A stretch of DNA of 64,000 nt, taken from contig NZ_JQJY01000003.1 of NCBI RefSeq assembly GCF_000745775.1, positions 248,001-312,000 on the forward strand. Direction: 5' to 3'. Below are positions 4,749 to 30,340 of the stretch, piece after piece. Origin of the DNA: Flavobacterium sp. ASV13 (GTDB lineage Bacteria > Bacteroidota > Bacteroidia > Flavobacteriales > Flavobacteriaceae). The position numbers were made by a program, and so were the translations under genes. The stretch's first letter is position 1. Every line of letters starts with the position of its first letter. A model generated the notes under the pieces. It had not been told where the DNA came from. It was given only the letters and a program-made list of their open reading frames with translations, and made no database searches.

Positions 4749-4753
4749 TTTTT

Positions 4754-4952
4754 TTTCTCGCAGATTTAGCAGATTAAGAAATCTTAAATAATTATCGACA
4801 CAGATTTATTGATATTCAAATAAATTAAATCTGCACAATCTGCTAAATCTGCGAGAAACAAAAAAACTTTGCGACTTTGCGAGATTAAATACCTTTTTTG
4901 CGAGAAAACCTTCAATATGAGAAGACGCACTGCTGTGCGCCTCTACAGATGG
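4754..4952. repeat. Mosaic of dispersed intergenic repeats between the nuclease gene and purL
   Basis: Most of the 309-nt gap 4749-5057 is repeat-like. A perfect 22-bp inverted repeat has arms at 4754-4775 and 4837-4858 (arm contains CTCGCAGATTTAGCAG). A string of TTTGCGACTTTGCGAG-like words follows at 4866-4890. Next, at 4919-4946, is a degenerate copy of the GACGCACTGC palindrome that is perfect at 25901. No ORF is supported here; the long hairpin could end transcription of the nuclease gene. Confidence 0.6.
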
Positions 4953-4996
4953 CAAAAAAGGTCATTACATTTTTTTGTAAAGAGTTTGTTATCAAA

Positions 4997-5028
4997 TTTG
5001 CGCTTACTATTTATTTAAACTAAATTTG
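4997..5028 (+). promoter_or_regulatory. purL promoter, Bacteroidota type
   Basis: TTTG at 4997-5000, a 20-nt spacer, then TAAATTTG at 5021-5028: an exact match to the Bacteroidota -33/-7 consensus. It places the transcript start about 25 nt before the purL ATG. No purine riboswitch can fit in so short a leader. Confidence 0.7.
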
Positions 5029-8916: not shown

Positions 8917-11322
8917 ATGAAAAATATGATACGCAAAATATACCTTCCAATTCTCTTATTCACTATAAGCCAATTTTCCTTTGCTCAAAAAACGACTGCC
9001 ATAAAAGGAAATATCACTGACGGAAAACTTCCTGTCGAATTTGTTGATGTTGTTTTAAAAAAAGCCAGCGATTCTACCAAAATAGCCAATTATGCTGTAA
9101 CCGATGTTATGGGAAATTTTGCTTTAGAGAATGTTCCTTCTGGCGATTATCAGCTTCAATTTAAATTAATTGGTTTTAAAACTATTTCTCAAAAGATAAA
9201 AGTTGCTGAGAGTCCAATTTCCATTGGAACAATCAAATTGCAAAACGATGCTAATTTACTGAATGACGTTGTTGTACAATCTCAGAAAAAACAAATTCAG
9301 AAAACGAACGAAGGTTTTATTTTTAATGCTGTTTCGAATATTTCACAATCCGGCGGAACTGCGACAGATATGCTGAAAAGCATTCCGACAGTTGCTGTAG
9401 ATGCGGAAGGCGGAATTACATTAAGAGGAAAATCGCCCATGATTTTGATTAACGGAAAAAATTCGGCCATTACCAATATGGATCAGATTGCGGCAAGCAG
9501 TATTGAAAGCATCGAAATAATAAGTAATCCAACCGCGAAATATGATGCTAATGCCGAAAGCGGTATTATTAATATTAAATTGAAGAAAAACAATCAAAAC
9601 GGTCTTAATGGCGCTGTGGTTTTAGGAGGCGGTTTTGGCGCAAAAGGCAGAGTGAATAGCTCGGTTCTTTTAAATAATAAAACAGAAAAATGGAACATTG
9701 GTTTAGGATACGACAATCGTTTTGCCGGAAGAACTAAAAAGATTAACGCTGACCGAACAAACTATTTTATTGATGATGAACATTACATTCATCAGCACAG
9801 AGATGACGCCCGCACGGAAGGTTTACAAAATCTAAAATTCAATGTTGATTTTACTCCAAACGACAAAAATTCATTTTCATTTGAAGCTTTAGGAAACATT
9901 GAAACTCAGGATAACGACGAAACTTTGTACACGCAGGTAAATACAAGTACAAATGCATTCTTCTCAAGTAACAGAAGGCATTCTTTAGAATTGGAACGCT
10001 CAAAAGTTGGGGAATTGTCTTTTAATTATGAACGGAAATTTTCTGATGAACGAAAAAGTTTAAATACTTCAATCACTTCGTCATTCGGGAAACACAGAGA
10101 AAACACTGATATCGACACTTATAATTACGATGAATATCAACAACAAATTGGCGAAGCTAAATTACAGCGCACGCACAATTATGAAAACCAAAATATCTCT
10201 AATGCAATTGTAAATTATGCTTTTCCAGTTTCAGAAAAAACAACTGTAGAAACAGGTTACAAAGGAACATTTCGCTTTTTTAATTCTGATTTTGAAAGCG
10301 CTGATTTAGTTAATGGTGATTATGTTGTAAATCCTATTGCTAGCAATACTTTCGAATTTAATGAACAAATAAACGCTGTTTACGGAATGCTGAATTCATT
10401 TATTGGCGAAAGCGAAAATCCAAAATGGAAATACAATTTAGGTTTGCGTGCAGAAAATGTTTCAAACACTGGAGCAACGCAAAATAATAGCGATCGCTTT
10501 AGTAATAATTATTTGAAACTTTTTCCATCGGCTTCGTTGCAATTGAATTTAAAAGCAGATGAATTTTTCAAAATCGGCTATAGCAAACGTATCAATCGCC
10601 CAGATTTAGACGATTTAAATCCGTTTATTGATATTACAGATGCGTTAAATCCACATGGTGGAAATCCGTATTTGAAACCTGAGATTATTCATATTGCCGA
10701 AATGAGTTACAATAAAGACTGGCAAAATTATTCGTTATCAGCCAATGCATTTTACAGAAATACAACAGACGCAATCAGACAATATGCTGAATTACTAGAT
10801 AATGGTGTAATTTTTCTCCAACCAAGAAACATTGGAAGCACTGTTACTTATGGTTTAGAAACTATTTTCAGTCTGAAACCAATTGGTTTTTATGATGCGA
10901 ACATCAGCTTGACTGCTTTTCAGCAAAATATTAATGCATCGAATTTAGGCGAAGATGTTGTAAATAATGCTTTTAGCTGGTATGGAAAAATCATCAATAA
11001 TTTTGTTCCTTGGAAAGGCGGAAAGCTGCAGATTATTGGAAATTATAATTCGGCTTTAGCAACTGCACAGGGAAAAAGAATTCCGATTTATAATGTCGAT
11101 ATGGGATTTCAGCAAAAACTCGGAAAAGGAAATGCTCGTTTAGGTTTGGTTGTCACCGATATGTTTAATACGCTTGAAAGTGGTTATAAAAACAATACCG
11201 CATTGTTCAGTAATAACAGAACCAACAAATCAGACACTCGCGCTTTGATGCTTACGTTTGCGTATACCTTTAAATCTGATTTTAAAGAAAAACTACTAGA
11301 AAATCAGTTTTCGACAGAATAA
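8917..11322 (+). CDS. TonB-dependent receptor, outer-membrane beta-barrel family (CarboxypepD_reg-like)
   Basis: An 801-aa outer-membrane protein. A signal peptide (ending SFAQ) is followed by a carboxypeptidase-regulatory-like beta-sandwich (~25-110), a plug-like region with LRGKSPMILINGKNS and SSIESIEIISNPTAKYDANAESGIINI (~165-215), and a large barrel (~230-800). The short plug and barrel resemble the OMP_b-brl_3 receptors common in Bacteroidota. The substrate is unknown, and no SusD-like partner is adjacent. The gene stands alone. A second ATG lies three codons in, so the exact start is uncertain. Confidence 0.85.
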   Translation: MKNMIRKIYLPILLFTISQFSFAQKTTAIKGNITDGKLPVEFVDVVLKKASDSTKIANYAVTDVMGNFALENVPSGDYQLQFKLIGFKTISQKIKVAESPISIGTIKLQNDANLLNDVVVQSQKKQIQKTNEGFIFNAVSNISQSGGTATDMLKSIPTVAVDAEGGITLRGKSPMILINGKNSAITNMDQIAASSIESIEIISNPTAKYDANAESGIINIKLKKNNQNGLNGAVVLGGGFGAKGRVNSSVLLNNKTEKWNIGLGYDNRFAGRTKKINADRTNYFIDDEHYIHQHRDDARTEGLQNLKFNVDFTPNDKNSFSFEALGNIETQDNDETLYTQVNTSTNAFFSSNRRHSLELERSKVGELSFNYERKFSDERKSLNTSITSSFGKHRENTDIDTYNYDEYQQQIGEAKLQRTHNYENQNISNAIVNYAFPVSEKTTVETGYKGTFRFFNSDFESADLVNGDYVVNPIASNTFEFNEQINAVYGMLNSFIGESENPKWKYNLGLRAENVSNTGATQNNSDRFSNNYLKLFPSASLQLNLKADEFFKIGYSKRINRPDLDDLNPFIDITDALNPHGGNPYLKPEIIHIAEMSYNKDWQNYSLSANAFYRNTTDAIRQYAELLDNGVIFLQPRNIGSTVTYGLETIFSLKPIGFYDANISLTAFQQNINASNLGEDVVNNAFSWYGKIINNFVPWKGGKLQIIGNYNSALATAQGKRIPIYNVDMGFQQKLGKGNARLGLVVTDMFNTLESGYKNNTALFSNNRTNKSDTRALMLTFAYTFKSDFKEKLLENQFSTE

Positions 11323-16422: not shown

Positions 16423-19400
16423 TTAAAAGTTATTTAGCCAAACTCTTATTTTATTTTTATTATTTGATTTAGCCTCTCCTGCAATCTTTTTTGCTTGTAA
16501 AATTTCAATAAATTGCCAATTGATTTCATTCTCTTCAAAAAGTATTTGAGATTTAGAACGAATATCTTTATATGGTTTTTCCATTAAATCTTTTAAAATT
16601 AGAATCTCTTCTTTAGTCAGTTTATTGCCAACTGAATTTATTAGCTTAACTTTCATACTAGTTTCCAATTTATTAGAGAAAATATTTTTTAATCTATTAA
16701 AATTCAACCATAAATCGAAATTTTTAATCTTGTTTTTACTATTAATTAATAACTGAGAAACTTCGATTGCTAATTCTTCATTTAATAAATAGTCATCCAA
16801 AATTTGATCTTTGATAATATAATTCTTCAATTCTTCTTTAAGAGTAAAATCTTTTAAAAGCAGAATAAAATCCTCAACTTCTAATTCTTTTTTATATTTT
16901 TTATAAAAGTCTAGATAACTAGCCCAATTTCTTATTAACAATTTTATTTGTACTCCTGGATAAACTGATTTTATTTCCTTAAAGCTGTAAACATTGAGTG
17001 GAATTATATCGTATTGAATAAGTTTTTCAACTTTATCTTTACTAATTAATTTGTAATCAAATTCATCAGCTAATTTATACTGCTTTGGAATGCTTTTTTT
17101 CACAAAAACACTATATGCTTCTATTGTTAAACTATCATTACTTATTAATTTTAAAATAAATTCATTTTGTAATTCTTTTTCTTTATCAACTTTAATAACT
17201 GTTGAAGCTAAAATTAGGTAATTTTCATTCAGAAAAGTATTAAGAATTTCATTAAAAGAATTATCATAATTCCAGTAATAATCATATACATTTATCCAGC
17301 TTGCTTTTATTTTATTTTCTTTAACTAACAAATCACAGTCAATTAATTTGTCAATTTCATTAAAATCTAACAACTTATTTACTTGCTTTTGTAAAAATAT
17401 AAGCTTTGTATCTTCTTCTACATTTATATTATTAAGAATATATAAAACATAAAGGGCAGTTTCATTTTGATCATATTCTAATTGTGAATAAATATTCCTA
17501 GCATATAAATTATAATTATCTAATTGTAAATATTTTATAATTTCATCAAGATTGTTTTCGTAAATATAAGTCAGATTCGATTTATTAAATCTTTCTAAAT
17601 CAAATGAGGCACCCAACTTATATTCCATTACTGTTTTTAGATTGTTATATGTAATCTCATATCTATTATTTTCATAAACAATATCAAACAGTTTATTGAA
17701 TTCATTATTAAAAGATAATAGTTCTCTAAATTTAACATCAAGAACTTCCTTACCTAAAATATTTTGAACTCTATCAAAAGAGTTTTGTTCATGAAAATCA
17801 TGCAAAATACTAAAATCATTAGCTATGTATGAACTTAATTCTTTATTTTTATTTGTATATAATAAAGTGGCGTCATCAGCAACACTTAATAATATATATA
17901 ATATCCGCTTTTTGTCCTCATCAATAAAATTAGGATCTTTTTCTATAGTGTTCCAAAACTTATCCCAACTTTTGGCTAACTCAGTTATAAATACTTTACT
18001 TTGATTTCCTTCATATATAAAATAACTCAAAAAATCCCAAATTCTTCTACTATTCCAATTTGCAATTGTATCTAATAGAGCTTGAAATTTCTCTTGATAA
18101 TTTAATTTAAAGGCTGTTATATGACTTACTAAATCAACGTTTAAAATTCGATCATTCTTAAAATTATTGAGAGGCAATTCTTCTATTATGTCATCAAGAT
18201 TTGATAATTCATAATCAAAAGATTTAGGCTCGCTTATTCTCGAAATAATATTAATTTTAAATTTTTGATCTGTTTCGTTTATTCCTCCCTTTTGAAAGAT
18301 CGAAATATATTCTTTATAATGTTCGTCAATATATCCATTTAATAATAAAAAAATCAATAGTGGATCATTGTAGATTCTGTCTTTTTCTTCTATAGAGATT
18401 TCCTCATAAAAACTATCAAGTTCTTTTTTTAATTTTTCTTTTGATAAATCTTTATTTTCAAGTATTTCCTTTAATGTCCAATTATTTAAATCATTTTGAT
18501 TATCTCGATTCTCCTTGATTTCATCTTCTTTTTCAAGAATTCTTTTATCGAGATTTAATATCAAATCATGCTTTTCAGAGTACAAATAACCAGTATTGAC
18601 ATCAATATCATTAAGTTTTAAACCTGTTGGATGATCGGAAGCATTGTTAAAGTATCTTATTTCGTTATCATAGAATTTATTTAAATCTAAACCATTATTA
18701 ATGATAATTTTAAAAGTTTTACGTTCAGAATTATACATCAATCCTCTAATAGATGAATCATTGATATGTTCTTTAATATGATACAAATAAATTGTATTCA
18801 AATCACTTATTTTCTTAATATTATCATTCTTTATATTTTTTATTTCTTCTTTAATTAAATTTACTTTTTCCTTTAAATCAACTAAAGAGTTTTTAATTAA
18901 TAGTTCCTTATTAAAAAACATTAAATCAATATTACTTTTACTAACATGTAATCTTGAAAAATCTTTCGGTCTTAAATTTTTATAAATTATGAGAGCTAAT
19001 AACTTTTCGGGGCTTAATTCTTCTTTTTCTAGTTTTTGCTGTTCTTTATATACTATGAATTCATTAATAATGTTTTTGAGAGTTCTATTATCAGTTATAA
19101 AGGAAGAAACTGTATTTATAAATTCTTTCGTAGGTTTGTTAAAAATATCCTTCCCCACAAAAATTTTATCTAATTTCTCATTCAAAACATTTTTTGAATT
19201 ACTATAATTAACAAACGGTATAGCTGGAATAATTAAATCAAAAAATTTTGTTCTATCTAATTCATTTAAAAAAAGATCATCTTTTATAGCGTACAAAAAG
19301 GTAACTTTACGAGGATCATTAGGTTTAATATTGCACAAATAGGAATTAAGAATAAAATTAATCTCCCTTAGTGTCCTATATATTTCTGTAGTATTAAATC

Positions 19401-20172
19401 TATCTAAATCTTCTATAACAACAATATCAATTGAAATTTTTTCAAAAAAATATAAAATTTCATCAATATGCTTGTTTAGTAAATCTTTACTTTCTGCCTT
19501 ATTTCCAAATTCAGCATCTTTTAGACTAATTTTATTTATTCTCAAATTTTTTAATAGCTCAATAAAAATTTGACCTATAACAGACATTGATGCAAGAGAT
19601 AGAACTATTAAAATAAAACAACTAAAATTAAAATCATCTGTTAACTTCCAATTATTAGGATTCAATTGATAACTGTAAAAACTCAATAACAAGTACGATG
19701 ATATTATAAGTAATAAAAATGCAGTTACTTTAATCCAGTTTTTAGGATCCAATACATTTAATTCACTAATTCGACTTATTCTCGATTCTGGTAATTTTTC
19801 TGCTTTTTGGCTGTAAATAATTTGTTGCAGGATATTTAGTTGAATTTGATCTTTAAATGTATCATATTCATTGGTTTCATTAAATGATGCAAGTGAAATA
19901 TTTAAAATTTCCAAATCAGGATACTGAGATTTGAAAGATTTTATTATTGTACTTTTACCAGAACCATATACACCTGATAATGCAAGATTTTTAACATCTT
20001 CATTATCAATTGCATTTTTTAAATGCCTCAAATATTTTTTAACTTTCGGATCATCCTTTTTATCTAAAGGAGAAAGAATTTCTAATTCAATTTCTTTCTT
20101 TTGATCATCATTCATTATTTCAGAAGAATTTTCATCTTCTTCAATATTTTGATTTACGTTTTGATCTATCAT
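16423..20172 (-). CDS. YobI/KAP-like membrane-anchored P-loop NTPase
   Basis: A 1249-aa protein. Walker A GVYGSGKST is at residues 67-75 in a KAP-like N-terminal NTPase. Two hydrophobic segments (~148-170 and ~182-206) are inserted between Walker A and Walker B (IDIVVIEDLDRF, ~247-258), an arrangement known for KAP and YobI NTPases. A helical remainder of about 900 residues follows, with no recognised nuclease motif. It probably sits at the inner membrane with both ends cytoplasmic. KAP-type NTPases include phage-exclusion proteins (PifA), so a defence or membrane-surveillance role is possible but inferred. The gene looks more AT-rich than its neighbours and stands alone, which suggests acquisition by transfer. 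Confidence 0.7.
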   Translation of the reverse strand: MIDQNVNQNIEEDENSSEIMNDDQKKEIELEILSPLDKKDDPKVKKYLRHLKNAIDNEDVKNLALSGVYGSGKSTIIKSFKSQYPDLEILNISLASFNETNEYDTFKDQIQLNILQQIIYSQKAEKLPESRISRISELNVLDPKNWIKVTAFLLLIISSYLLLSFYSYQLNPNNWKLTDDFNFSCFILIVLSLASMSVIGQIFIELLKNLRINKISLKDAEFGNKAESKDLLNKHIDEILYFFEKISIDIVVIEDLDRFNTTEIYRTLREINFILNSYLCNIKPNDPRKVTFLYAIKDDLFLNELDRTKFFDLIIPAIPFVNYSNSKNVLNEKLDKIFVGKDIFNKPTKEFINTVSSFITDNRTLKNIINEFIVYKEQQKLEKEELSPEKLLALIIYKNLRPKDFSRLHVSKSNIDLMFFNKELLIKNSLVDLKEKVNLIKEEIKNIKNDNIKKISDLNTIYLYHIKEHINDSSIRGLMYNSERKTFKIIINNGLDLNKFYDNEIRYFNNASDHPTGLKLNDIDVNTGYLYSEKHDLILNLDKRILEKEDEIKENRDNQNDLNNWTLKEILENKDLSKEKLKKELDSFYEEISIEEKDRIYNDPLLIFLLLNGYIDEHYKEYISIFQKGGINETDQKFKINIISRISEPKSFDYELSNLDDIIEELPLNNFKNDRILNVDLVSHITAFKLNYQEKFQALLDTIANWNSRRIWDFLSYFIYEGNQSKVFITELAKSWDKFWNTIEKDPNFIDEDKKRILYILLSVADDATLLYTNKNKELSSYIANDFSILHDFHEQNSFDRVQNILGKEVLDVKFRELLSFNNEFNKLFDIVYENNRYEITYNNLKTVMEYKLGASFDLERFNKSNLTYIYENNLDEIIKYLQLDNYNLYARNIYSQLEYDQNETALYVLYILNNINVEEDTKLIFLQKQVNKLLDFNEIDKLIDCDLLVKENKIKASWINVYDYYWNYDNSFNEILNTFLNENYLILASTVIKVDKEKELQNEFILKLISNDSLTIEAYSVFVKKSIPKQYKLADEFDYKLISKDKVEKLIQYDIIPLNVYSFKEIKSVYPGVQIKLLIRNWASYLDFYKKYKKELEVEDFILLLKDFTLKEELKNYIIKDQILDDYLLNEELAIEVSQLLINSKNKIKNFDLWLNFNRLKNIFSNKLETSMKVKLINSVGNKLTKEEILILKDLMEKPYKDIRSKSQILFEENEINWQFIEILQAKKIAGEAKSNNKNKIRVWLNNF

Positions 20173-21469: not shown

Positions 21470-22891
21470 TTAGTCCTCTCGGCTTCCGTCATCTGCCATT
21501 CTAACCAATTTTGGAGTAAACTTCGCTACAACATCAACCAAATCCTGTTGTGCTTCCATCACCTGATGGATATCTTTATACGCCATTGGAGCTTCGTCCA
21601 GACCTGCTCCGATAAGCGTAACGCCATGATCTTTCAGGATCGATTTCATCTCGGTTGGTGTGATGTTTTTTATCGCTTGGGTTCTGCTCATTTGTCTTCC
21701 TGCTCCATGCGAAGCCGAATTAATGGCGTTCTCCTCGCCTTTTCCTCTCACCAAAAATCCCGGTGCGGTCATACTTCCCGGAATGATTCCCATAACGCCT
21801 TTTCCGGCTGGGGTTGCTCCTTTTCTATGTACGATCACTTCTTCGCCATTCCAGATTTCTTTCCAGGCAAAATTATGATGGTTTTCGACTTTGGCTAAAA
21901 TCGTCGCACCCAAAGCGCGTTCCATTTTGTTATGGATAATCTCGTGACAAGCCGAAGCATAATCTCCCGCCAAATTCATCGCCATCCAGTATTCCTGACC
22001 CAATTGCGAATTCATATCTAAATACGCTAAGTTTTTTGCCACTTCTGGAAGTTTACATTCGTCTTTGGCGATTTTAGTATAATGTCCCGCAATTGTGGCT
22101 CCCATTCCGCGTGAACCGGAATGCGTTAACAAAGCGACGTATTTTCCTTTTGGGATATTCAAAACGGCATCGTCTTGCGCAAATTCCATGATTCCGAATT
22201 CCACAAAGTGATTTCCACCACCCGAAGATCCTAATTGCGACCAGGCTTTATCTTTCAAATTCTTCACAAACGGATTCATATTGAAAGTCTCATTCTCCAA
22301 AACCGCATGATCTGATTTGTATTGACCGTGAAATCCGTGACCTGCTCCAAAAATGGAATTCGCAATTAATTCTTTTTTGAATTTGGCTTCGTTTTCAAAG
22401 TAAAAATCTTCTGGAATATCATAAACTGATAATGCCATTCTACATCCAATATCAACTCCAACACCATACGGAATAATAGCATTTTTTGTAGCAAGAACTC
22501 CGCCAATCGGTAATCCGTAACCTTGGTGCGCGTCTGGCATTAAAGCTCCGGCAACCGTAACAGGAAGTTTCATGGCGACTTCCATTTGTTTTCTGGCTCC
22601 GTCTTCGATATGATCTAATCCATAAGCCGAATACGCATTTGGTTTTTCATTTAAAGCAATGAAATCTTCTGGCTTTTCATTCGATTTTTCGATCAAAGCC
22701 ACAGCCAGTTTGCTGAAGATTTTATCTTCTATATAGTTTTCTGGAGTTTCTAAGACATTTTTGAAATTGGTAATCATTTCGTCTCTTGTGAATCCGTTTC
22801 TTTTGCTGTTTATTTTTAATGCGATTCCAATTATTTTTCCTTCTGGGAATCCTAATTCTAATATATCTGTACCGTTTATTTGTGTTTTCAT
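21470..22891 (-). CDS. rtcB: RtcB RNA ligase (3'-phosphate/5'-OH, GTP-dependent)
   Basis: A 473-aa ligase that joins RNA 3'-phosphate or 2',3'-cyclic phosphate ends to 5'-OH ends using GTP and Mn2+. The catalytic set is intact: D147 and C150 (GVGVDIGC), N227-H228 (GGGNHFVEFG), H257 (LTHSGSRG), H338/H339 (ENHHNFAW), and the guanylylated His at 395 (SASHGAGRQMSRTQA). It lies downstream of rsr and the Y-RNA-like array on the same strand, an order close to the rsr-yrl-rtcB operons known in other bacteria. No rtcA cyclase or rtcR activator lies nearby. Its likely job is to repair cleaved tRNA or other RNA. Confidence 0.96.
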   Translation of the reverse strand: MKTQINGTDILELGFPEGKIIGIALKINSKRNGFTRDEMITNFKNVLETPENYIEDKIFSKLAVALIEKSNEKPEDFIALNEKPNAYSAYGLDHIEDGARKQMEVAMKLPVTVAGALMPDAHQGYGLPIGGVLATKNAIIPYGVGVDIGCRMALSVYDIPEDFYFENEAKFKKELIANSIFGAGHGFHGQYKSDHAVLENETFNMNPFVKNLKDKAWSQLGSSGGGNHFVEFGIMEFAQDDAVLNIPKGKYVALLTHSGSRGMGATIAGHYTKIAKDECKLPEVAKNLAYLDMNSQLGQEYWMAMNLAGDYASACHEIIHNKMERALGATILAKVENHHNFAWKEIWNGEEVIVHRKGATPAGKGVMGIIPGSMTAPGFLVRGKGEENAINSASHGAGRQMSRTQAIKNITPTEMKSILKDHGVTLIGAGLDEAPMAYKDIHQVMEAQQDLVDVVAKFTPKLVRMADDGSRED

Positions 22892-22908
22892 TTTTTTTCT
22901 TTTTTTAA

Positions 22909-22988
22909 GATTATAGAATAAAGAGAATAGAAAATAGACTTATCCAAAGCCTCAAAATCTATATTCTATTCTCTTTATTCTATAATCT
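22909..22988. repeat. Long inverted repeat (ATAGAATAAAGAGAATAG family) in front of rtcB
   Basis: Arms at 22909-22940 and 22957-22988 are complementary over about 32 bp with only one or two mismatches. The hairpin lies between the last Y-RNA-like element and the rtcB start, 17 nt from the ATG. The same word family recurs at 30257, 31536 and 32040. It could act as a processing site or partial terminator that uncouples the RNA array from rtcB. Confidence 0.65.
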
Positions 22989-23027: not shown

Positions 23028-23099
23028 AAAAGAGGTAACATTTAGGAATGGTTTAAATTTCTTTGGAACGAAGGAACCATTTCCTGACGACACTCTTTT
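23028..23099 (-). ncRNA. Y-RNA-like element 5 (no tRNA-like domain)
   Basis: About 72 nt. Lower stem AAAAGAG/CTCTTTT, then internal loop TGTCGTC opposite AAATGTTAC, then upper stem AGGAAATGGTT/AACCATTCCT with one extra A on the 5' side. The apical part carries TTCCTTCG, the variant of the YTACTTCG shared by the other elements. The loop pairs GU with AC and leaves a C unpaired, like the bulged C of Ro60-binding stems. It is the last of five tandem copies and ends about 40 nt before the hairpin in front of rtcB. Confidence 0.65.
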
Positions 23100-23101
23100 T
23101 T

Positions 23102-23186
23102 TAAGAGTAATATTCTATAAGCGACTTTTAGGATTCGAACCTAATATTATCATGCCACGAAGTAGCGCTTTATAGACGGCATCTTA
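23102..23186 (-). ncRNA. Y-RNA-like element 4, with isolated tRNA T-arm
   Basis: About 85 nt. Lower stem TAAGA/TCTTA, internal loop TGCCGT opposite AATATTAC, upper stem CTATAAAGCG/CGCTTATAG with a bulged A, then CTACTTCG. The apical region holds a perfect T-arm at 23128-23144: stem TTAGG/CCTAA with 7-nt loop TTCGAAT. No D-arm or acceptor-like stem is present, so this looks like a reduced copy of element 1. Confidence 0.7.
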
Positions 23187-23192
23187 TTTTTT

Positions 23193-23261
23193 GAAAAAGC
23201 AATACTTTATAAGAGTTAATATTCAATCTAAACGAAGTAGCTCTTATACACGACATTTTTC
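23193..23261 (-). ncRNA. Y-RNA-like element 3 (no tRNA-like domain)
   Basis: About 69 nt. Lower stem GAAAAA/TTTTTC, internal loop TGTCGTGT opposite AAAGTATTGC, perfect upper stem ATAAGAG/CTCTTAT (23241-23247 with 23209-23215), and the shared CTACTTCG. The apical loop is short and AT-rich with no tRNA-like arms. It may represent the bare Ro60-binding module. Confidence 0.65.
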
Positions 23262-23267
23262 AGTTTT

Positions 23268-23403
23268 AAAAAGAAGTAAAAAGCAATAAGAGAAACGGGG
23301 CTTGTCTTGCCAGAGTCGAACTGGATAACCTTGCTGATTTTACAACTTCGCTATTCCTCCCCTAAATGGTGACGAAGTAACTCTTATTTACGACATTCTT
23401 TTT
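23268..23403 (-). ncRNA. Y-RNA-like element 2, with partial tRNA-like domain
   Basis: About 136 nt. Lower stem AAAAAGAA/TTCTTTTT, internal loop TGTCGTAA opposite TGCTTTTTAC, perfect upper stem ATAAGAG/CTCTTAT. TTACTTCG can pair with a later CGAAGTTG. Inside is a T-arm at 23310-23324 (stem CCAG/CTGG, 7-nt loop TTCGACT) and a GGGG (23359-23362) that can pair with CCCC (23297-23300). A TAGC-type D-arm start is visible but its stem is poor. Part of the tRNA mimicry has therefore decayed or been remodelled. Confidence 0.7.
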
Positions 23404-23411
23404 TTATTTTT

Positions 23412-23554
23412 AAAACAAGGCAACTGGCAATAAGTGACATATCCTGCTCTAACCACTGAGCTACATTTCTGTAATTAAACAGAATTGGTGGGGATCGAAC
23501 CCACGTCCCGGGCGTTATCAATGCGAAGTAACACTTATCTACGACACTTGTTTT
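23412..23554 (-). ncRNA. Y-RNA-like element 1, with circularly permuted tRNA-like domain (YrlA-like)
   Basis: About 143 nt, first in the array. Lower stem AAAACAAG/CTTGTTTT, internal loop TGTCGTAG opposite TGCCAGTTGC, perfect upper stem ATAAGTG/CACTTAT (23532-23538 with 23430-23436), then TTACTTCG. Inside, reading 5'-3' on the minus strand: a T-arm (23504-23488; stem GTGGG/CCCAC, loop TTCGATC); an acceptor-like stem CAATTCT/AGAAATG with one A-A mismatch, extended by 2 bp and closed by a 6-nt loop (23487-23464); the TA expected for U8-A9; and a D-arm (23461-23446; GCTC/GAGC, 8-nt loop AGTGGTTA with GG). Acceptor ends are thus joined and the RNA opens at the anticodon side, as in YrlA RNAs. Confidence 0.85.
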
Positions 23555-23586: not shown

Positions 23587-23624
23587 CAAATATTCAAATC
23601 ATACTGCGCAATTATTTTGCGCAG
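23587..23624 (-). promoter_or_regulatory. Operator-promoter of the Y-RNA array
   Basis: The palindrome CTGCGCAA-N5-TTGCGCAG at 23604-23624 is followed on the minus strand by 9 nt and AATATTTG (23594-23587), a near -7 box. There is no good TTTG at -33. The same layout, with an identical palindrome and spacing, precedes rsr. The site is 12 nt after the rsr stop, so the array can be transcribed apart from rsr. Confidence 0.65.
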
Positions 23625-23636
23625 AAGATTCTTTTT

Positions 23637-25154
23637 TTACAATTCTATTCGGTTAATGTAATTCAAAGCGCTGTTTTTATCCTCTAAAACATTTAAAACA
23701 TCAAATACTTTATCAGACCAGCCGGCTATTAAATATACATCGTTTTTTTCGATGTTTATTGGCGACTGACCGTAACCTGCCAAATCGAACAAATACAATT
23801 TTGCATTTGGAGCGATCTTTTTGTATCGGTTCCAGGAGTTTGCAAATGAGTCTTTTGTGTAAGCATTGTTCCACATTTGAACATCTGTAAACAACATTAC
23901 TTTGTCTACAATTTCTTTTCGACTTATTAAATCTTCCAAAACCAAATGACCATTTGTAGCGTAACCCACTTCACCTTCACGTTTGTAATATTCATTGACA
24001 TTTGCCAATATACTTCGTTTTGGCATATTGATTATTTTCCAACGATCACCAAACATACCGCTTACCACATTTTTACAACGGCTTTGCATCAACATACCCA
24101 ACATTAAACCGATATCATAAAGCAATACTTTACTTTTTAGCGAAATTGGCTGTTGCATTGAACCTGAAACGTCACAAGCGATTACAACTGATGTGTTTAC
24201 ATCAAAACCTTTTATGTTTTGTGAACTGATTGTAACGGCATCTTCCAAAGCATCTAAAACCATTGAAGTGAATTTAAAATTCAAATCTTTCAGTTCACGA
24301 TAAGCAGATAAAAATCGGAATGGCAATTGTTTGGAGTTTACGACTGCTTTTTCGTTAGAAAGATAATCGCATACTTTCAACATATGAAAACCTGAAACAT
24401 TCGCTTCTAAGATATTTCGTAAGTTACGCAACAAAGCCATGTAACCTATTTTACCGCTGTCGATTAATTCTTCCCATTTTTGAGTGAATGCTTTTTGTTT
24501 TTCAAATTCATTACCAAACTTTATTTGACCTAATTGCGACAACTCCGTTTCCCAAGTATATGGCGTTTGCAAAGTGTTACTCGCAACTTTATTAAAGATT
24601 GCTTGCTGTGCTTCGTCTTTTGCTTTCGGGTGAACCAAAAACAATGCGTCTTTTAATTTAACCGCGCCATCGCGATTGTATTTTGCCAATTGGTATTCAT
24701 CAAATTTATTGAAGGAAACTGCCAAACCTTTTTGTATTTGTTTTGACAAACGGTTTAATTTTTTAATACCATTACGTTCGTTTGCCATTTGGTAATACGC
24801 TAACAATTCTGTTATCTCGTCTGCACGCTGAATTACGTGTGTTATCATTTTACTGATTAATGAATCGCCAGAATAAATCTTAGCCAATTCTACAACCAAA
24901 ACCAATGGCACAGAACGCATATGCATTTCGTTACGGGCATAAACCGCCAGCTTTGCCACAAATTCCGGATTACATTTTTTGATTAAGCTTTGTATTCTTT
25001 CTAAACGAGCTTTATCCTTTTCATAAAACGAAGCATTCAAACTTGTAGTTACAACTGCTGCATACAATTCATATTCTGATGTTAAAGAAAAAGCTGGAGC
25101 ATTTTCATGATTAACTATATTGTTTTTCTCTTTTGCTAAAAAATTGAATTTCAT
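23637..25154 (-). CDS. rsr: Ro60-family TROVE/vWA RNA-binding protein (Rsr)
   Basis: A 505-aa bacterial Ro60 orthologue, close to the usual 500-540 aa. A HEAT-like TROVE ring covers about residues 25-315 (VKLKDALFLVHPK is typical). A von Willebrand A domain covers about 322-500 with the MIDAS set D328, S330, S332 (CDVSGSM) and LFTDVQMW. Ro60 binds Y RNAs on its outer surface and misfolded RNA ends in its central hole, and with Y RNA can gate exonucleases such as PNPase. Here it is directly upstream of five Y-RNA-like elements and rtcB, so ring, guide RNAs and ligase form one module. Confidence 0.95.
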   Translation of the reverse strand: MKFNFLAKEKNNIVNHENAPAFSLTSEYELYAAVVTTSLNASFYEKDKARLERIQSLIKKCNPEFVAKLAVYARNEMHMRSVPLVLVVELAKIYSGDSLISKMITHVIQRADEITELLAYYQMANERNGIKKLNRLSKQIQKGLAVSFNKFDEYQLAKYNRDGAVKLKDALFLVHPKAKDEAQQAIFNKVASNTLQTPYTWETELSQLGQIKFGNEFEKQKAFTQKWEELIDSGKIGYMALLRNLRNILEANVSGFHMLKVCDYLSNEKAVVNSKQLPFRFLSAYRELKDLNFKFTSMVLDALEDAVTISSQNIKGFDVNTSVVIACDVSGSMQQPISLKSKVLLYDIGLMLGMLMQSRCKNVVSGMFGDRWKIINMPKRSILANVNEYYKREGEVGYATNGHLVLEDLISRKEIVDKVMLFTDVQMWNNAYTKDSFANSWNRYKKIAPNAKLYLFDLAGYGQSPINIEKNDVYLIAGWSDKVFDVLNVLEDKNSALNYINRIEL

Positions 25155-25203: not shown

Positions 25204-25241
25204 CAAAGATTTCGGAACTACTGCGCAATTATTTTGCGCAG
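25204..25241 (-). promoter_or_regulatory. Operator-promoter of rsr
   Basis: The palindrome CTGCGCAA-N5-TTGCGCAG (25221-25241), a 9-nt gap and AATCTTTG (25211-25204) on the minus strand lie 50-87 nt before the rsr ATG. The palindrome plus two flanking bases (23 bp) is identical to the copy at 23602-23624. With a weak -33 region, an activator or a de-repressed weak promoter is likely. Confidence 0.65.
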
Positions 25242-25276: not shown

Positions 25277-25891
25277 ATGAATTTAAAAGAAATCTATTCT
25301 GAATTACTCTCAAAAATTGGCTTTTCAGCAAATGAAATTCAGCAAAAATGGAAAGATTTAGAAAAGGCATATTCAGGAAAATCAAGGCATTATCATAATC
25401 TTAACCATTTAAAAGAAATGATTGAGAGCTTTGAAATCTATCGGGACAAACTTGAAAACCCAAACGAAATATTATTTTCTATTTTTTATCATGATTTTGT
25501 TTATTCGGCTTCTAAAAAAGATAATGAACTCAAAAGTGCCGAATATGCTTTGACTATTTTAACTGAGAATATTGATCTAAATAAACAATTGGTTTTTGAT
25601 GCAATCTGTGCCACACAGCAACATCAGCAAAATGTAATAGAAGATATTAATTGGTTAATCGATTTTGATTTGAAAATCCTTGCTAAAGATTGGGAAGATT
25701 ATAAAATCTATTTCGAACAAATTCGAAAAGAGTATCGCATTTATCCTGATTTTCTATACAAACCTGGAAGAGCAAAAGCTTTAAAACACTTTCTGGAAAA
25801 TGAATTTATTTTTCAAACCGAGGAATTTAGGAGTTTATATGAGGAGAAAGCGAGAATTAATATTGAAAAAGAAATTTCATTTTTAATATAA
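25277..25891 (+). CDS. Predicted metal-dependent HD phosphohydrolase (COG4339-like)
   Basis: A 204-aa soluble all-helical protein. Metal-site landmarks are RHYHNLNHLKEM (~37-48) and the HD pair in IFYHDFVYS (~72-80), with further Asp residues in INWLIDFDLKIL. This is the COG4339 group of predicted HD phosphohydrolases, whose substrate is not established. It diverges from rsr across a 122-nt region with the shared palindrome and precedes the WYL gene, so it is likely part of the RNA-repair regulon. Removing cyclic phosphates or hydrolysing a nucleotide signal are both possible roles and purely inferred. Confidence 0.8.
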   Translation: MNLKEIYSELLSKIGFSANEIQQKWKDLEKAYSGKSRHYHNLNHLKEMIESFEIYRDKLENPNEILFSIFYHDFVYSASKKDNELKSAEYALTILTENIDLNKQLVFDAICATQQHQQNVIEDINWLIDFDLKILAKDWEDYKIYFEQIRKEYRIYPDFLYKPGRAKALKHFLENEFIFQTEEFRSLYEEKARINIEKEISFLI

Positions 25892-25928: not shown

Positions 25929-25984
25929 GGGAAATTGTAACGAAAATAAAAATCATTGAAAACAAGATTTCATTATTAACGTAA

Positions 25985-26090
25985 ATGCGTGAGGGATTGA
26001 AGTGGAGCTCTTTTTTAAGGCGATTTTTCTTCGCCTTAAAAAAAAGCGGGAACGTAAAGCCCGGCCCGGAGGGACACGCCCAAAAAAACA
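25985..26090. repeat. GC-rich repeat-like element in front of the WYL gene
   Basis: The element starts near GAGGGATTGAAG, contains a perfect 13-bp hairpin (26011-26023 with 26031-26043, TTTTTTAAGGCGA) and ends with AAAGCCCGGCCC and GGGACACGCCC. It is much richer in GC than its surroundings. It is open in frame with the WYL gene, which makes that ORF look 37 codons too long. This wording resembles repeats seen in many Flavobacteriia intergenic regions (recalled, not searched). Confidence 0.5.
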
Positions 26091-27868: not shown

Positions 27869-30259
27869 ATGAAACGCACAATTAAAAAAGTTGCTGTAAT
27901 TGGATCCGGAATTATGGGTTCAGGAATAGCTTGCCATTTTGCCAATATTGGTGTTGAAGTTTTACTTCTTGACATCGTACCGCGCGAATTGACCGAGGCT
28001 GAAGCTAAAAAAGGATTAACTCTTGAAAGTAAAGCTGTTCGCAACCGAGTGGTAAATGAGCACTTGGCGAATTCATTAAAATCGAAACCATCTCCTATTT
28101 ACAGTCAAAAATTTGCAAACCGAATCACAACTGGAAATACGACAGACGATATGGCAAAAATTGCTAATGTTGACTGGATTATCGAGGTTGTTGTAGAGCG
28201 TTTAGACATTAAGAAATTAGTTTTTGAACAAATCGAGAAATTCCGTAAACCGGGAACTTTAGTTACATCTAATACTTCTGGTATTCCAATTCATTTTATG
28301 AGTGAAGGAAGAAGCGAAGATTTTCAACAACACTTTTGCGGAACACACTTTTTTAACCCTGCGCGTTACTTAAAATTATTTGAAATTATTCCTGGTCCAA
28401 AAACTTCAACTGAAGTATTGGATTTCTTAAACGAATACGGATCTAAATTCTTAGGAAAAACATCTGTTGTTGCTAAAGATACTCCGGCGTTTATTGGAAA
28501 CAGAATTGGTATTTACGGAATCCAGAGTTTATTCCATTTAGTTAAAGAAATGGGATTAACTATCGAAGAAGTTGATAAATTGACTGGTCCGGTTATTGGT
28601 CGTCCAAAATCGGCTACTTTCCGTACTGTTGACGTTGTTGGTTTGGATACTTTGGTACACGTTGCTAACGGTATTTACGAAAACTGCCCGAACGACGAAC
28701 AACACGAATTGTTCAAACTTCCAGATTTCATCAACAAAATGATGGAGAATAATTGGTTAGGAAGCAAAACCGGACAAGGTTTCTACAAAAAAGTAGATAA
28801 AGATATTCTTTCTCTTGACTTAAATACATTAGAATACCGTGCTGCAAAAAAAGCAAATTTTGCAACTCTTGAGTTGACAAAAACTATCGATAAACCAATC
28901 AATCGTTTTAAAGTTTTAGTAAAAGGAACAGATAAAGCGGGAGAATTCTACCGTAAGAGTTTCGCTGGAATGTTTGCTTATGTGTCAAACAGAGTTCCTG
29001 AAATCTCAGACGAATTATACAAAATTGATGATGCCATGAAAGCTGGTTTTGGATGGGAAAATGGTCCATTCGAAATCTGGGATGCTATTGGTGTTGCCAA
29101 AGGAATTGAAATCATGAAAGCTGAAGGTTTAGCGCCTGCTGCATGGGTTACTGAAATGTTGGCTTCTGGAAGTGACAGTTTCTATACTGTAAAAGAAGGA
29201 GCTACTTATTTCTATAATATTCCAACAAAATCTCAAGTAAAAGTTCCTGGACAAGATTCATTCATTATTCTAAACAACATTCGCGAAAGCAAAAAAGTTT
29301 GGAGCAATAGTGGTGCAATTATTCAGGATTTAGGAGACGGAATCTTAAACTTAGAATTCCAATCTAAAATGAATACAATTGGTGGTGACGTTCTTGCTGC
29401 AATCAATAAAGCAATCGACTTATCTGAAAAAGAATATCAAGGTTTAGTTATTGGAAACCAGGCAGCGAATTTCTCTGTTGGGGCTAATATCGGAATGATT
29501 TTCATGATGGCGGTTGAACAGGAATACGATGAATTGAACATGGCAATTAAATTGTTCCAAGACACCATGATGCGTGTTCGTTACTCTTCTATTCCAGTAG
29601 TAGTTGCACCTCACGGAATGACTTTTGGTGGTGGATGCGAAATGAGCTTACACGCTGATAAAGTGGTTGCTGCTGCAGAAACGTACATGGGATTAGTTGA
29701 ATTTGGTGTTGGTGTAATTCCTGGTGGTGGTGGTTCTAAAGAAATGACTTTAAGAGCTTCAGATTTATTCCGCAAAAACGATGTGGAATTGAATGTTCTT
29801 CAAGAGTATTTCTTGACAATCGCAATGGCTAAAGTTTCGACTTCTGGTTATGAAGCTTTTGACACTGGACTTTTACAGCACGGAAAAGACGTTATTGTAG
29901 TAAACAAAGATCGTCAGATTGCTGAAGCTAAAAAACATGCATTGTTAATGGCGGAAGCTGGTTACACACAACCAATCAGAAGAACTGATGTGAAAGTATT
30001 AGGAAAACAAGCTTTAGGTATGTTCTTAGTTGGAACAGATCAAATGGAAGCTGGAAAATACATTTCTGAGCACGACAAGAAAATCGCTAACAAACTGGCT
30101 TATGTAATGGCTGGAGGTGATTTATCTGAAGCAACTTTAGTATCTGAACAATATTTATTAGATATCGAACGTGAAGCTTTCTTGAGTTTATGTACAGAAA
30201 GAAAAACTCTGGAGCGTATTCAATATATGTTAACTAAAGGAAAACCGCTTCGTAACTAG
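27869..30259 (+). CDS. fadN: 3-hydroxyacyl-CoA dehydrogenase / enoyl-CoA hydratase fusion
   Basis: A 796-aa bifunctional beta-oxidation enzyme. The N-terminal Rossmann domain starts VAVIGSGIMGSGIACHFAN (~8-26) with dehydrogenase signatures such as GTHFFNPARYLKL and DTPAFIGNRIGIYG. The C-terminal crotonase part (~490-720) holds the oxyanion-hole segments AANFSVGANIG and TFGGGCEMSLHAD. The order dehydrogenase-then-hydratase is that of FadN (B. subtilis-type), not FadB. It hydrates enoyl-CoA and oxidises the 3-hydroxyacyl-CoA, feeding the thiolase encoded next. Confidence 0.93.
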   Translation: MKRTIKKVAVIGSGIMGSGIACHFANIGVEVLLLDIVPRELTEAEAKKGLTLESKAVRNRVVNEHLANSLKSKPSPIYSQKFANRITTGNTTDDMAKIANVDWIIEVVVERLDIKKLVFEQIEKFRKPGTLVTSNTSGIPIHFMSEGRSEDFQQHFCGTHFFNPARYLKLFEIIPGPKTSTEVLDFLNEYGSKFLGKTSVVAKDTPAFIGNRIGIYGIQSLFHLVKEMGLTIEEVDKLTGPVIGRPKSATFRTVDVVGLDTLVHVANGIYENCPNDEQHELFKLPDFINKMMENNWLGSKTGQGFYKKVDKDILSLDLNTLEYRAAKKANFATLELTKTIDKPINRFKVLVKGTDKAGEFYRKSFAGMFAYVSNRVPEISDELYKIDDAMKAGFGWENGPFEIWDAIGVAKGIEIMKAEGLAPAAWVTEMLASGSDSFYTVKEGATYFYNIPTKSQVKVPGQDSFIILNNIRESKKVWSNSGAIIQDLGDGILNLEFQSKMNTIGGDVLAAINKAIDLSEKEYQGLVIGNQAANFSVGANIGMIFMMAVEQEYDELNMAIKLFQDTMMRVRYSSIPVVVAPHGMTFGGGCEMSLHADKVVAAAETYMGLVEFGVGVIPGGGGSKEMTLRASDLFRKNDVELNVLQEYFLTIAMAKVSTSGYEAFDTGLLQHGKDVIVVNKDRQIAEAKKHALLMAEAGYTQPIRRTDVKVLGKQALGMFLVGTDQMEAGKYISEHDKKIANKLAYVMAGGDLSEATLVSEQYLLDIEREAFLSLCTERKTLERIQYMLTKGKPLRN

Positions 30260-30340
30260 AAAATAGAACAAAGAGAATAGAATATAGATTTAAGACTTTG
30301 TAAAGTCTATTTTCTATACTCTATCTTCTATACTCTTAAA
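30257..30340. repeat. ATAGAATAGAATATAG-type inverted repeat between fadN and fadA
   Basis: Left arm 30257-30291 and right arm 30305-30338 are imperfectly complementary. It belongs to the same word family as the hairpin before rtcB. It sits inside an operon, so it must allow read-through; it may be a spacer or an RNA-stability element. Confidence 0.55.

What the first reader, a model, noticed from the sequence alone, without database searches (positions are those of the whole stretch)
23028..23554. Tandem array of five Y-RNA-like genes between rsr and rtcB
Seen directly: five minus-strand units at 23412-23554, 23268-23403, 23193-23261, 23102-23186 and 23028-23099, separated by only 2-8 nt. Each has perfect lower-stem arms, a TGYCGT-containing 5' loop strand opposite a 3' strand that ends TT(A/G)C, an upper stem closed by CNCTTAT-like partners, and YTACTTCG (CCTTCG in the last). 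Compensatory changes are visible: lower stems differ in sequence (AAAACAAG, AAAAAGAA, GAAAAA, TAAGA, AAAAGAG), yet each pairs with its own partner. Known: Ro60 proteins bind Y RNAs through a stem with a bulged C, and bacterial rsr, yrl and rtc genes cluster. Inference: these are five Y RNAs for the adjacent Ro60. Known loci that I recall carry one or two, so five with graded apical domains looks new. Automatic annotation would leave this 745-nt gap empty.
Basis: partly seen in the sequence, partly recalled or inferred. Interest (0 to 1): 0.95.

Follow-up and report, generated by a model that had tools for sequence, protein, structure and literature searches.

The report
Five-gene Ro60 Y RNA array
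Next to a bacterial Ro60 gene lie five small RNA genes that share one predicted Ro60-binding stem but carry different heads, several of which imitate parts of transfer RNA, and in some related bacteria one head copies a piece of ribosomal RNA.

Summary
The five minus-strand units between rsr (Ro60) and rtcB are real, at the stated coordinates, and very probably Y RNA genes. Each has a lower stem, a bulged U, two base pairs, an internal loop, an upper stem and a (U)ACUUCG-like motif; covariation is strong in the three classes tested. Such arrays lie downstream of Ro60 in much of Bacteroidota: 98 of 115 non-redundant loci have at least 3 units (up to 10). Of 299 genus genomes, 26 of 27 with Ro60 have at least 3 motif hits on one strand, against 2 of 272 without, both dispersed. 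In 14 of 115 loci a further unit type carries a 23S rRNA stretch (H69-H71 region; 25-33 nt at 85-100% identity in 13). An exact palindromic operator, twice in the 5.28-Mb genome, precedes Ro60 and the array. Arrays of several Y RNAs are not new in kind; the repertoire of heads seems to be. Expression, processing and Ro60 binding are untested.

The parts
23637..25154 (-). rsr: Ro60/TROVE protein, 505 aa, with a vWA MIDAS-like DVSGSM
   Evidence: Pfam TROVE 110.1 bits (cut-off 23); NCBIfam Rsr model only weakly (26.8 bits, cut-off 900); PDB TROVE proteins 9l5y/9kop E 2.8e-21; DVSGSM read in the translation
25222..25240 (.). palindromic operator TGCGCAA-N5-TTGCGCA between divergent rsr and the 25277-25891 ORF
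   Evidence: a matching element upstream of Ro60 in 65 of 115 loci
23605..23623 (.). second exact copy of the operator, between the rsr stop and unit 1
   Evidence: the only two exact matches of the degenerate palindrome in the 5.28-Mb genome
23587..23594 (-). AATATTTG, a -7-box-like element (Bacteroidota TAnnTTTG, recalled) with TTTG 14 nt after the operator
   Evidence: TTTG at offset 13 or 14 in 40 of 43 distinct operator sites downstream of the Ro60 stop and 46 of 59 upstream of Ro60, background about 0.3 per position; a second, smaller peak at offsets 5-6 (16 and 11 sites) is unexplained
23412..23554 (-). unit 1: Y RNA with circularly permuted tRNA-like head
   Evidence: (YrlA 25.4 bits)
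23488..23504 (-). unit 1 T-arm mimic GUGGG-UUCGAUC-CCCAC
   Evidence: helix 3: 4 of 5 pairs with changes on both sides
23464..23487 (-). unit 1 acceptor-like stem CAAUUCUG...CAGAAAUG (one A-A mismatch in the window)
   Evidence: helix 4: 7 of 7 pairs with changes on both sides across the class
23446..23461 (-). unit 1 D-arm mimic GCUC-AGUGGUUA-GAGC
   Evidence: helix 5, almost invariant, so its pairing is not tested by covariation
23268..23403 (-). unit 2: Y RNA with linear tRNA-like head
   Evidence: covariation 0.439 against 0.200 shuffled and at most 0.101 slid; 22 of 34 pairs with double changes
23297..23362 (-). unit 2 head: GGGG/CCCC closing stem, inner stem AUAGC/GUUAU plus GUUG/CAGC hairpin, T-arm CCAG-UUCGACU-CUGG at 23310-23324; no D-arm seen
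   Evidence: closing stem paired in 95.8% of cells but nearly invariant (2 of 4 pairs, one sequence each, with double changes); the free consensus fold did not draw it and paired CUUCGUC with part of GGGGAGG instead
23193..23261 (-). unit 3: Y RNA with short plain head
   Evidence: its class was not tested on an alignment of its own
23102..23186 (-). unit 4: Y RNA with T-arm-only head (T-arm at 23128-23144)
   Evidence: its class was not tested on an alignment of its own
23028..23099 (-). unit 5: Y RNA with short plain head
   Evidence: covariation 0.353 against 0.116 shuffled and at most 0.079 slid
21470..22891 (-). rtcB RNA ligase
   Evidence: Pfam RtcB 280.6 bits
25985..27133 (+). WYL-domain regulator (first ATG of the ORF; true start may be further in), divergent to rsr; candidate reader of the operator (inference)
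   Evidence: Pfam WYL and WCX; a homologue upstream of Ro60 in the held flank of 25 of 70 named loci

Best explanation
The locus encodes five Y RNAs for the adjacent Ro60. Shown by comparison: the units share a Ro60-type stem (lower helix, one bulged U, two base pairs, asymmetric internal loop, upper helix, UACUUCG-like motif) and differ in the head. Inferred: they are made as one transcript from the operator-controlled promoter before unit 1 and cut into separate RNAs at the short spacers; each is held by Ro60 through the common stem near the ring's opening; the head then gates the ring and presents a look-alike of part of a tRNA (units 1, 2, 4) or a plain loop (units 3, 5). The tRNA-like heads would bring tRNA-handling enzymes or PNPase to Ro60, or compete with broken tRNAs, so that one Ro60 can form several RNPs with different partners, induced together and, where rtcB lies beside them, with RNA repair. 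In relatives the same stem carries a 23S rRNA H69-H71 look-alike, extending the principle to ribosomal RNA.
For: Ro60 and RtcB neighbours. Array and Ro60 co-occur: at least 3 motif hits on one strand in 26 of 27 Ro60-positive and 2 of 272 Ro60-negative genus genomes, the latter far apart. Covariation: unit-1 class 22 of 32 pairs with double changes, score 0.427 against 0.195 shuffled and at most 0.114 slid; unit-2 class 22 of 34, 0.439 against 0.200 and at most 0.101; unit-5 class 7 of 14, 0.353 against 0.116 and at most 0.079. The Y-R pair next to the bulge switches C-G/U-A in these three classes. tRNA mimicry: unit 1 aligns to YrlA; T-loop UUCRA and D-loop GG are invariant or nearly so in 25 sequences; 97 of the 109 loci with units have a unit with a T-arm followed by a D-arm by a strict rule, 99 by a looser one. 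Operator and promoter before the array. A bulged-U core of the same layout fits four units of a Xanthomonas phage Ro60 locus (the script required T and UU), two stretches of which align to YrlA at E 6e-9 and 6e-6. Published: the YrlA basal stem tethers Rsr and the tRNA-like domain binds PNPase (PMC8394870, passages).
Against: No RNA-seq or binding data. Folding energies of units 1-4 are no better than shuffles. YrlA's gathering score is not reached in the window (25.4 against 69) or in 12 other array loci looked at. Six of 115 loci show no unit by this parse; two of them end within 200 bases of the Ro60 stop. In the 23S-type class the Y-R position is U-U in 3 of 14. The bulge is U, not the C recalled for vertebrate Y RNAs. 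Adaptor, decoy and gating roles cannot be told apart here. RtcB is within the held flank in only 16 of 70 named loci, none of them called Chryseobacterium, so a tie to RNA repair is not general.
Confidence: 0.72

Rival explanations
1. The array is a structured untranslated leader or attenuator that controls rtcB in cis and is never cut into separate RNAs.
For: Units are only 2-8 nt apart, in the rtcB orientation, with one operator-promoter before unit 1.
Against: Arrays of the same units lie downstream of Ro60 where no rtcB is found in the held flank, in all loci called Chryseobacterium among the 70 examined; the set and order of head types differ between loci, odd for an attenuator; some relatives have an operator of their own just before rtcB (L042, L044).
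Confidence: 0.1
2. Tandem decayed tRNA genes or a mobile repeat, without Y RNA function.
For: T-arm and D-arm pieces resemble tRNA; in L051 two units recur as a pair.
Against: ARAGORN finds no tRNA in the window; arms occur in permuted order and covary inside a conserved outer stem; arrays go with Ro60.
Confidence: 0.04
3. They are Y RNAs, but the heads are decoys that soak up tRNA- or ribosome-attacking nucleases rather than adaptors for Ro60 partners.
For: Salmonella work raises YrlA as a possible competitive inhibitor of a tRNA anticodon nuclease (PMC7790460, passage); a 23S H69-H71 copy fits a decoy for a ribosome-targeting enzyme; head repertoires vary between species.
Against: The window's heads lack an anticodon arm; fragments of YrlA were not seen in that work, so it is not cut by that nuclease (PMC7790460); PNPase tethering is the published role (PMC8394870).
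Confidence: 0.3

Closest known systems
YrlA bacterial Y RNA (Rfam RF02553; Salmonella rsr-yrlBA-rtcBA)
   Same: Ro60-adjacent, closing stem for Rsr, circularly permuted tRNA-like head with T-, acceptor- and D-arms (unit 1), rtcB neighbour
   Different: Five units instead of two; four units have other heads; below Rfam's gathering score; a WYL gene and a palindromic operator where Salmonella has RtcR
Deinococcus radiodurans Y RNA / RYPER
   Same: Proposed tether and gate on Ro60 (review passages)
   Different: Head types and unit number; no PNPase tethering shown here
Y RNA arrays of phage Ro60 loci (Xanthomonas phage Olaya; phage csAssE-Sib)
   Same: Bulged U, two pairs, UACUUC and 3' UU core; several units next to Ro60
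   Different: Sequence of the two pairs (GG/CC), and in csAssE-Sib apparently complete tRNA-like heads
Vertebrate Y RNA (RF00019)
   Same: Ro60 stem with a one-base bulge followed by a short helix and internal loop (recalled)
   Different: Bulged base U instead of C; no Rfam match up to E = 10

Membership tests
Bacterial Y RNA (Ro60-associated small RNA, as a kind) | Encoded beside a Ro60/Rsr gene | tested here: met
   association across 299 genomes
Bacterial Y RNA (Ro60-associated small RNA, as a kind) | 5' and 3' ends pair in a stem with a bulged, conserved protein-binding site | tested here: met
   structure only; bulge is U; same layout fitted in a Xanthomonas phage Ro60 locus
Bacterial Y RNA (Ro60-associated small RNA, as a kind) | At least one Y RNA with a tRNA-like domain (criterion recalled from Chen 2014) | tested here: met
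   unit 1; 97-99 of 109 loci with units
Bacterial Y RNA (Ro60-associated small RNA, as a kind) | Discrete transcript bound to Ro60 in cells | not testable with these tools
   needs RNA-seq and co-purification
Rfam RF02553 YrlA as curated | Score at or above the gathering cut-off of 69 bits | tested here: not met
   25.4 bits in the window; 36.8 at best in L050 and 33.9 in L148; none at the cut-off in 10 more array loci; the Xanthomonas phage locus also stays below (50.0, 39.6)
Vertebrate Y RNA (RF00019) | Match to the Y RNA model; bulged C (recalled) | tested here: not met
   no match up to E = 10; bulge U in 516 of 520 hits
Ro60 / TROVE protein | TROVE domain above Pfam cut-off | tested here: met
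   110.1 bits against 23
RNA repair operon with RtcR | RtcR sigma-54 activator and rtcA beside rtcB | tested here: inconclusive
   of the five neighbours scanned the only regulator is WYL; rtcA and RtcR were not searched for elsewhere in the genome

The most novel reading that the evidence does not exclude
Ro60 in Bacteroidota is served by a co-regulated, swappable library of RNA look-alikes on one standard stem: permuted tRNA, a D-armless linear tRNA, a bare T-arm, plain loops and, in relatives, a copy of the 23S rRNA H69-H71 region. Y RNAs would then be a general platform for presenting mimics of structured RNAs to Ro60 and its partner enzymes or toxins, and the 23S type would be the first rRNA-mimicking Y RNA.
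Probability: 0.45. Interest if true: 0.88.

Novelty: new variant of a known kind. Interest (0 to 1): 0.74.

Why it matters
Why Ro60 needs Y RNAs, and what the tRNA mimic in them is for, is open. A locus with five heads on one stem, with natural relatives that lose, add or swap heads, gives a direct test: delete single units and see which Ro60 partners and substrates change. The 23S-like head gives a concrete lead to the reported role of bacterial Ro60 in 23S rRNA maturation (only a title in the reference list of PMC8394870, seen).

Tried and rejected
Rejected: tRNA gene cluster (ARAGORN 0 genes); that folding energy alone proves structure; that the whole 23S-type head derives from 23S (nhmmer of the part after the 23S stretch against one rRNA operon: best E 1.2), so only the short stretch is claimed. 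The 23S-type head was not found in 395 phylum-wide genomes at E 1e-12, but that sample held no known positive, and one exact pattern found nothing in viral contigs. Matches to miRNA families around 22907-22988 are far below their cut-offs and fall on a long AT-rich hairpin. Paper searches (listings of 10-30 rows each) showed no paper on Y RNAs of Flavobacterium or Chryseobacterium or on an rRNA-mimicking Y RNA, but Chen 2014, Sim and Wolin 2018, and Boccitto and Wolin 2019 are not held and may report more than I recall; I did not ask for Wang 2018. I did not model Ro60 or dock RNA. The own-versus-permuted arm pairing is biased, because the parse selects paired arms; the chimera control and the slid controls replace it. 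The unit scan looked only downstream of Ro60; in L140 (Prevotella MAG) four motif hits lie about 4.6-5.0 kb before the Ro60 stop and were not counted.

Full report
What was checked. The stretch between rsr (23637-25154, minus) and rtcB (21470-22891, minus) holds five tandem units on the minus strand at the coordinates given. The neighbours are a TROVE/Ro60 protein (110.1 bits, cut-off 23) and RtcB (280.6 bits); a WYL regulator lies divergent upstream.

Anatomy. In all five units the 5' arm is followed by a single T, then G-Y, then CGT and a few bases, the upper 5' arm, and TACTTCG or CCTTCG; the 3' side has the upper 3' arm, a loop strand ending in TT, then R-C, then the lower 3' arm. Consensus folding of three classes shows that G and Y pair with C and R, with the T left as a bulge, and that the Y-R pair changes between C-G and U-A. 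The bulged base is T in 516 of 520 hits of a motif that allowed any base there, and in all 489 that also score 30 or more. This is the layout of a Ro60-binding Y stem (helix, one-base bulge, short helix, internal loop), with U in place of the vertebrate C (recalled).

Is it more than chance? I collected Ro60 loci: 27 of 299 genus genomes carry Ro60, 2 of 299 in a family-wide sample, one of them the window's own, 24 of 395 phylum-wide (20 regions fetched, three already held, one left out), and 80 named loci from the species-genome collection (the best 80 of 379). After removing 13 duplicates, 115 loci remained. One parse, scoring lower stem, upper stem and the TTRC end, gave 513 units at score 30 or more on the sense strand and 10 on the antisense strand of the same stretches. 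Units per locus: 0 in 6, 1 in 4, 2 in 7, 3 in 17, 4 in 14, 5 in 34, 6 in 21, 7 in 8, 8 in 2, 10 in 2; 98 of 115 have at least 3 and 67 at least 5. These loci are related, many from Chryseobacterium, so the counts are not independent. A motif search of the 299 genus genomes found at least 3 hits on one strand in 26 of the 27 with Ro60 (the other, G232, has 2) and in 2 of the 272 without a Ro60 match: G136, whose three hits lie at least 0.4 Mb apart, and G291, whose three lie on different contigs.

Covariation. Unit-5 class, 21 sequences: 95.7% of cells paired, covariation 0.353 against 0.116 (500 shuffles) and at most 0.079 with partners slid. Unit-1 class, 25 sequences: 95.7% paired, 0.427 against 0.195 and at most 0.114; 22 of 32 pairs have changes on both sides. 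Unit-2 class, 24 sequences including a few poorly aligned ones: 96.6% paired, 0.439 against 0.200 and at most 0.101; 22 of 34 pairs. Units 3 and 4 were not tested as classes of their own. Cross-unit chimeras lose the pairing: median score 24 against 38. Most of each structure was derived from these alignments, which favours it. Folding energy alone would not have shown it.

The heads. Unit 1 has T-arm, acceptor-like stem and D-arm in that order, the circularly permuted tRNA mimic of YrlA; Rfam YrlA aligns to it at 25.4 bits, E 0.0047, below its cut-off of 69. Unit 2 has an inner covarying stem-hairpin and a T-arm in normal tRNA order, with no D-arm that I can see, inside a GGGG/CCCC stem; that stem is nearly invariant, is paired in 95.8% of cells when named, and was not drawn by the free consensus fold, so it is the weakest part of this reading. 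Unit 4 has a T-arm alone. Units 3 and 5 have short loops. With P permuted tRNA, L linear, s short, T T-arm only, the window reads PLsTs; 12 other loci read the same and 4 read PPLsTs. Of 109 loci with units, 97 have a T-arm followed by a D-arm by a strict rule (99 by a looser one) and 107 some T-arm.

A ribosomal look-alike in relatives. Two Flavobacterium loci (L050, L051) carry a unit of about 235 nt whose head begins with a piece of 23S rRNA. In L051, 30 of 31 letters match six rRNA genes of its own genome, G232, and eight of G239, 32 of 33 by a wider alignment; in L050 it is 25 of 29 against its own operon. Altogether 14 of the 115 loci have this unit type, in Flavobacterium, Chryseobacterium and MAGs labelled Limnohabitans and Prevotella. 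Against one Flavobacterium operon (G239) the stretch is 25-33 nt at 85-100% identity in 13 of them (33 of 33 in C. arachidis, L154) and 17 of 19 in the Prevotella MAG (L140, E 0.029). The class is conserved over its whole length (mean column identity 80%), and the consensus fold draws the 23S piece as an H69-like hairpin followed by the H70/H71 strand (helix names recalled, 16 of 61 pairs with double changes, no shuffle control). The rest of the head does not match 23S by sequence. The window's own array lacks this unit.

Control of the locus. The palindrome TRCGYAA-N5-TTRCGYA occurs exactly twice in the 5.28-Mb genome: 25222-25240 before rsr and 23605-23623 before unit 1. With one mismatch allowed there are 8 further sites, and the reversed control pattern gives 16 against 10, so only the exact form is informative. 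In the 115 loci the element recurs upstream of Ro60 in 65, and in 27 of 109 between the Ro60 stop and the first unit; TTTG of a Bacteroidota -7 box follows at 13 or 14 nt in 46 of 59 and 40 of 43 distinct sites. So rsr and the array appear to be two promoters of one regulon; the WYL protein, with a homologue upstream in 25 of 70 named loci (one of them partial and 5.6 kb away), is the likely reader of the element (inference).

Comparison with the known. A review states that YrlA's basal stem tethers Rsr, that its tRNA-like domain binds PNPase, and that DusA and TruB modify it (PMC8394870, passages); Salmonella has rsr-yrlBA-rtcBA (PMC7790460, passages). From memory, Chen et al. 2014 report Y RNAs near Ro60 in more than 250 bacteria and phages, at least one per species with a tRNA-like domain; that paper is not held. 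As an outside check I read a Xanthomonas phage Ro60 locus: two places align to YrlA at 50.0 and 39.6 bits, and four units with a bulged-U core of the same layout lie in tandem upstream of the Ro60 gene (the script required T and UU there). So tandem Y RNAs are not new in kind; what seems new is the size and constancy of the Bacteroidota arrays, their head repertoire, and above all the 23S-like head.

Mechanism and limits. The sequence supports a common Ro60 stem with exchangeable heads. That the heads recruit enzymes, gate the ring or act as decoys is inference; I hold adaptors somewhat likelier than decoys. No transcript, processing or binding was seen.

Noticed in passing
L050:4337-4572, L051:6078-6309, L101:9004-9232, L113:8351-8576, L114:10450-10674, L125 about 9007-9232, L128:9542-9773, L129:9524-9751, L140:12555-12769, L142:9588-9814, L146:9665-9893, L148:10522-10749, L149:9295-9520, L154:9603-9834: Y units of about 215-236 nt whose head holds a stretch of the 23S rRNA H69-H71 region (25-33 nt in 13, 19 nt in L140) plus a conserved scaffold for which I found no match in an rRNA operon.
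   Followed up: partly
L201:2107-2233 and L201:2251-2382 (phage csAssE-Sib): Genes annotated tRNA-Tyr and tRNA-Lys lie inside Y-type stems (bulged T, GG/CC, TTACTTCG) next to a Ro60 gene, so they look like whole-tRNA heads of Y RNAs rather than ordinary tRNA genes.
   Followed up: partly
L200:1833-2442 (Xanthomonas phage Olaya): Four tandem Y units upstream of the phage Ro60 gene; no feature is annotated there.
   Followed up: partly
L113, L114, L119, L121, L124, L128, L132, L141, L146, L148, L154 arrays (Chryseobacterium): A recurrent head of unknown likeness with a core like CYGAATAACAGTAAGGA ... GGTGCA; no Rfam match up to E = 1 at the one in L148.
   Followed up: no
L050 near 3660-3795, L051 near 3913-4040, and L101, L102: A conserved head of another unknown type (CGCTAGAG...TAGTTTAA...).
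   Followed up: no
L051 about 3018-5020: Two Y units recur as a pair, each pair preceded by a similar small open reading frame and followed by an operator-like element (by eye): looks like cassette duplication.
   Followed up: no
L140, about 4.6-5.0 kb before the Ro60 stop (Prevotella MAG): Four further motif hits upstream of Ro60, probably a second array.
   Followed up: no
window 22907-22988: Long AT-rich inverted repeat before rtcB; a second copy (86% identity) lies at about window 30257-30339, with weaker partial matches elsewhere: a local repeat element.
   Followed up: partly
window 25974-26070: Flavo-1 RNA (RF01705, 44.4 bits, cut-off 42) at the start of the WYL open reading frame; another lies just after Ro60 in L128, on the opposite strand.
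   Followed up: no
Rfam RF02553: The YrlA gathering cut-off (69 bits) is not reached in any of the 13 array loci looked at here, nor by the two Xanthomonas phage matches, so annotation with it would leave these genes blank.
   Followed up: partly
window 16423-20172 minus: 1249-aa protein with no NCBIfam match (Pfam not run), GSGKST near the N-terminus by eye, two genes downstream of rtcB: possible NTPase or defence gene.
   Followed up: no
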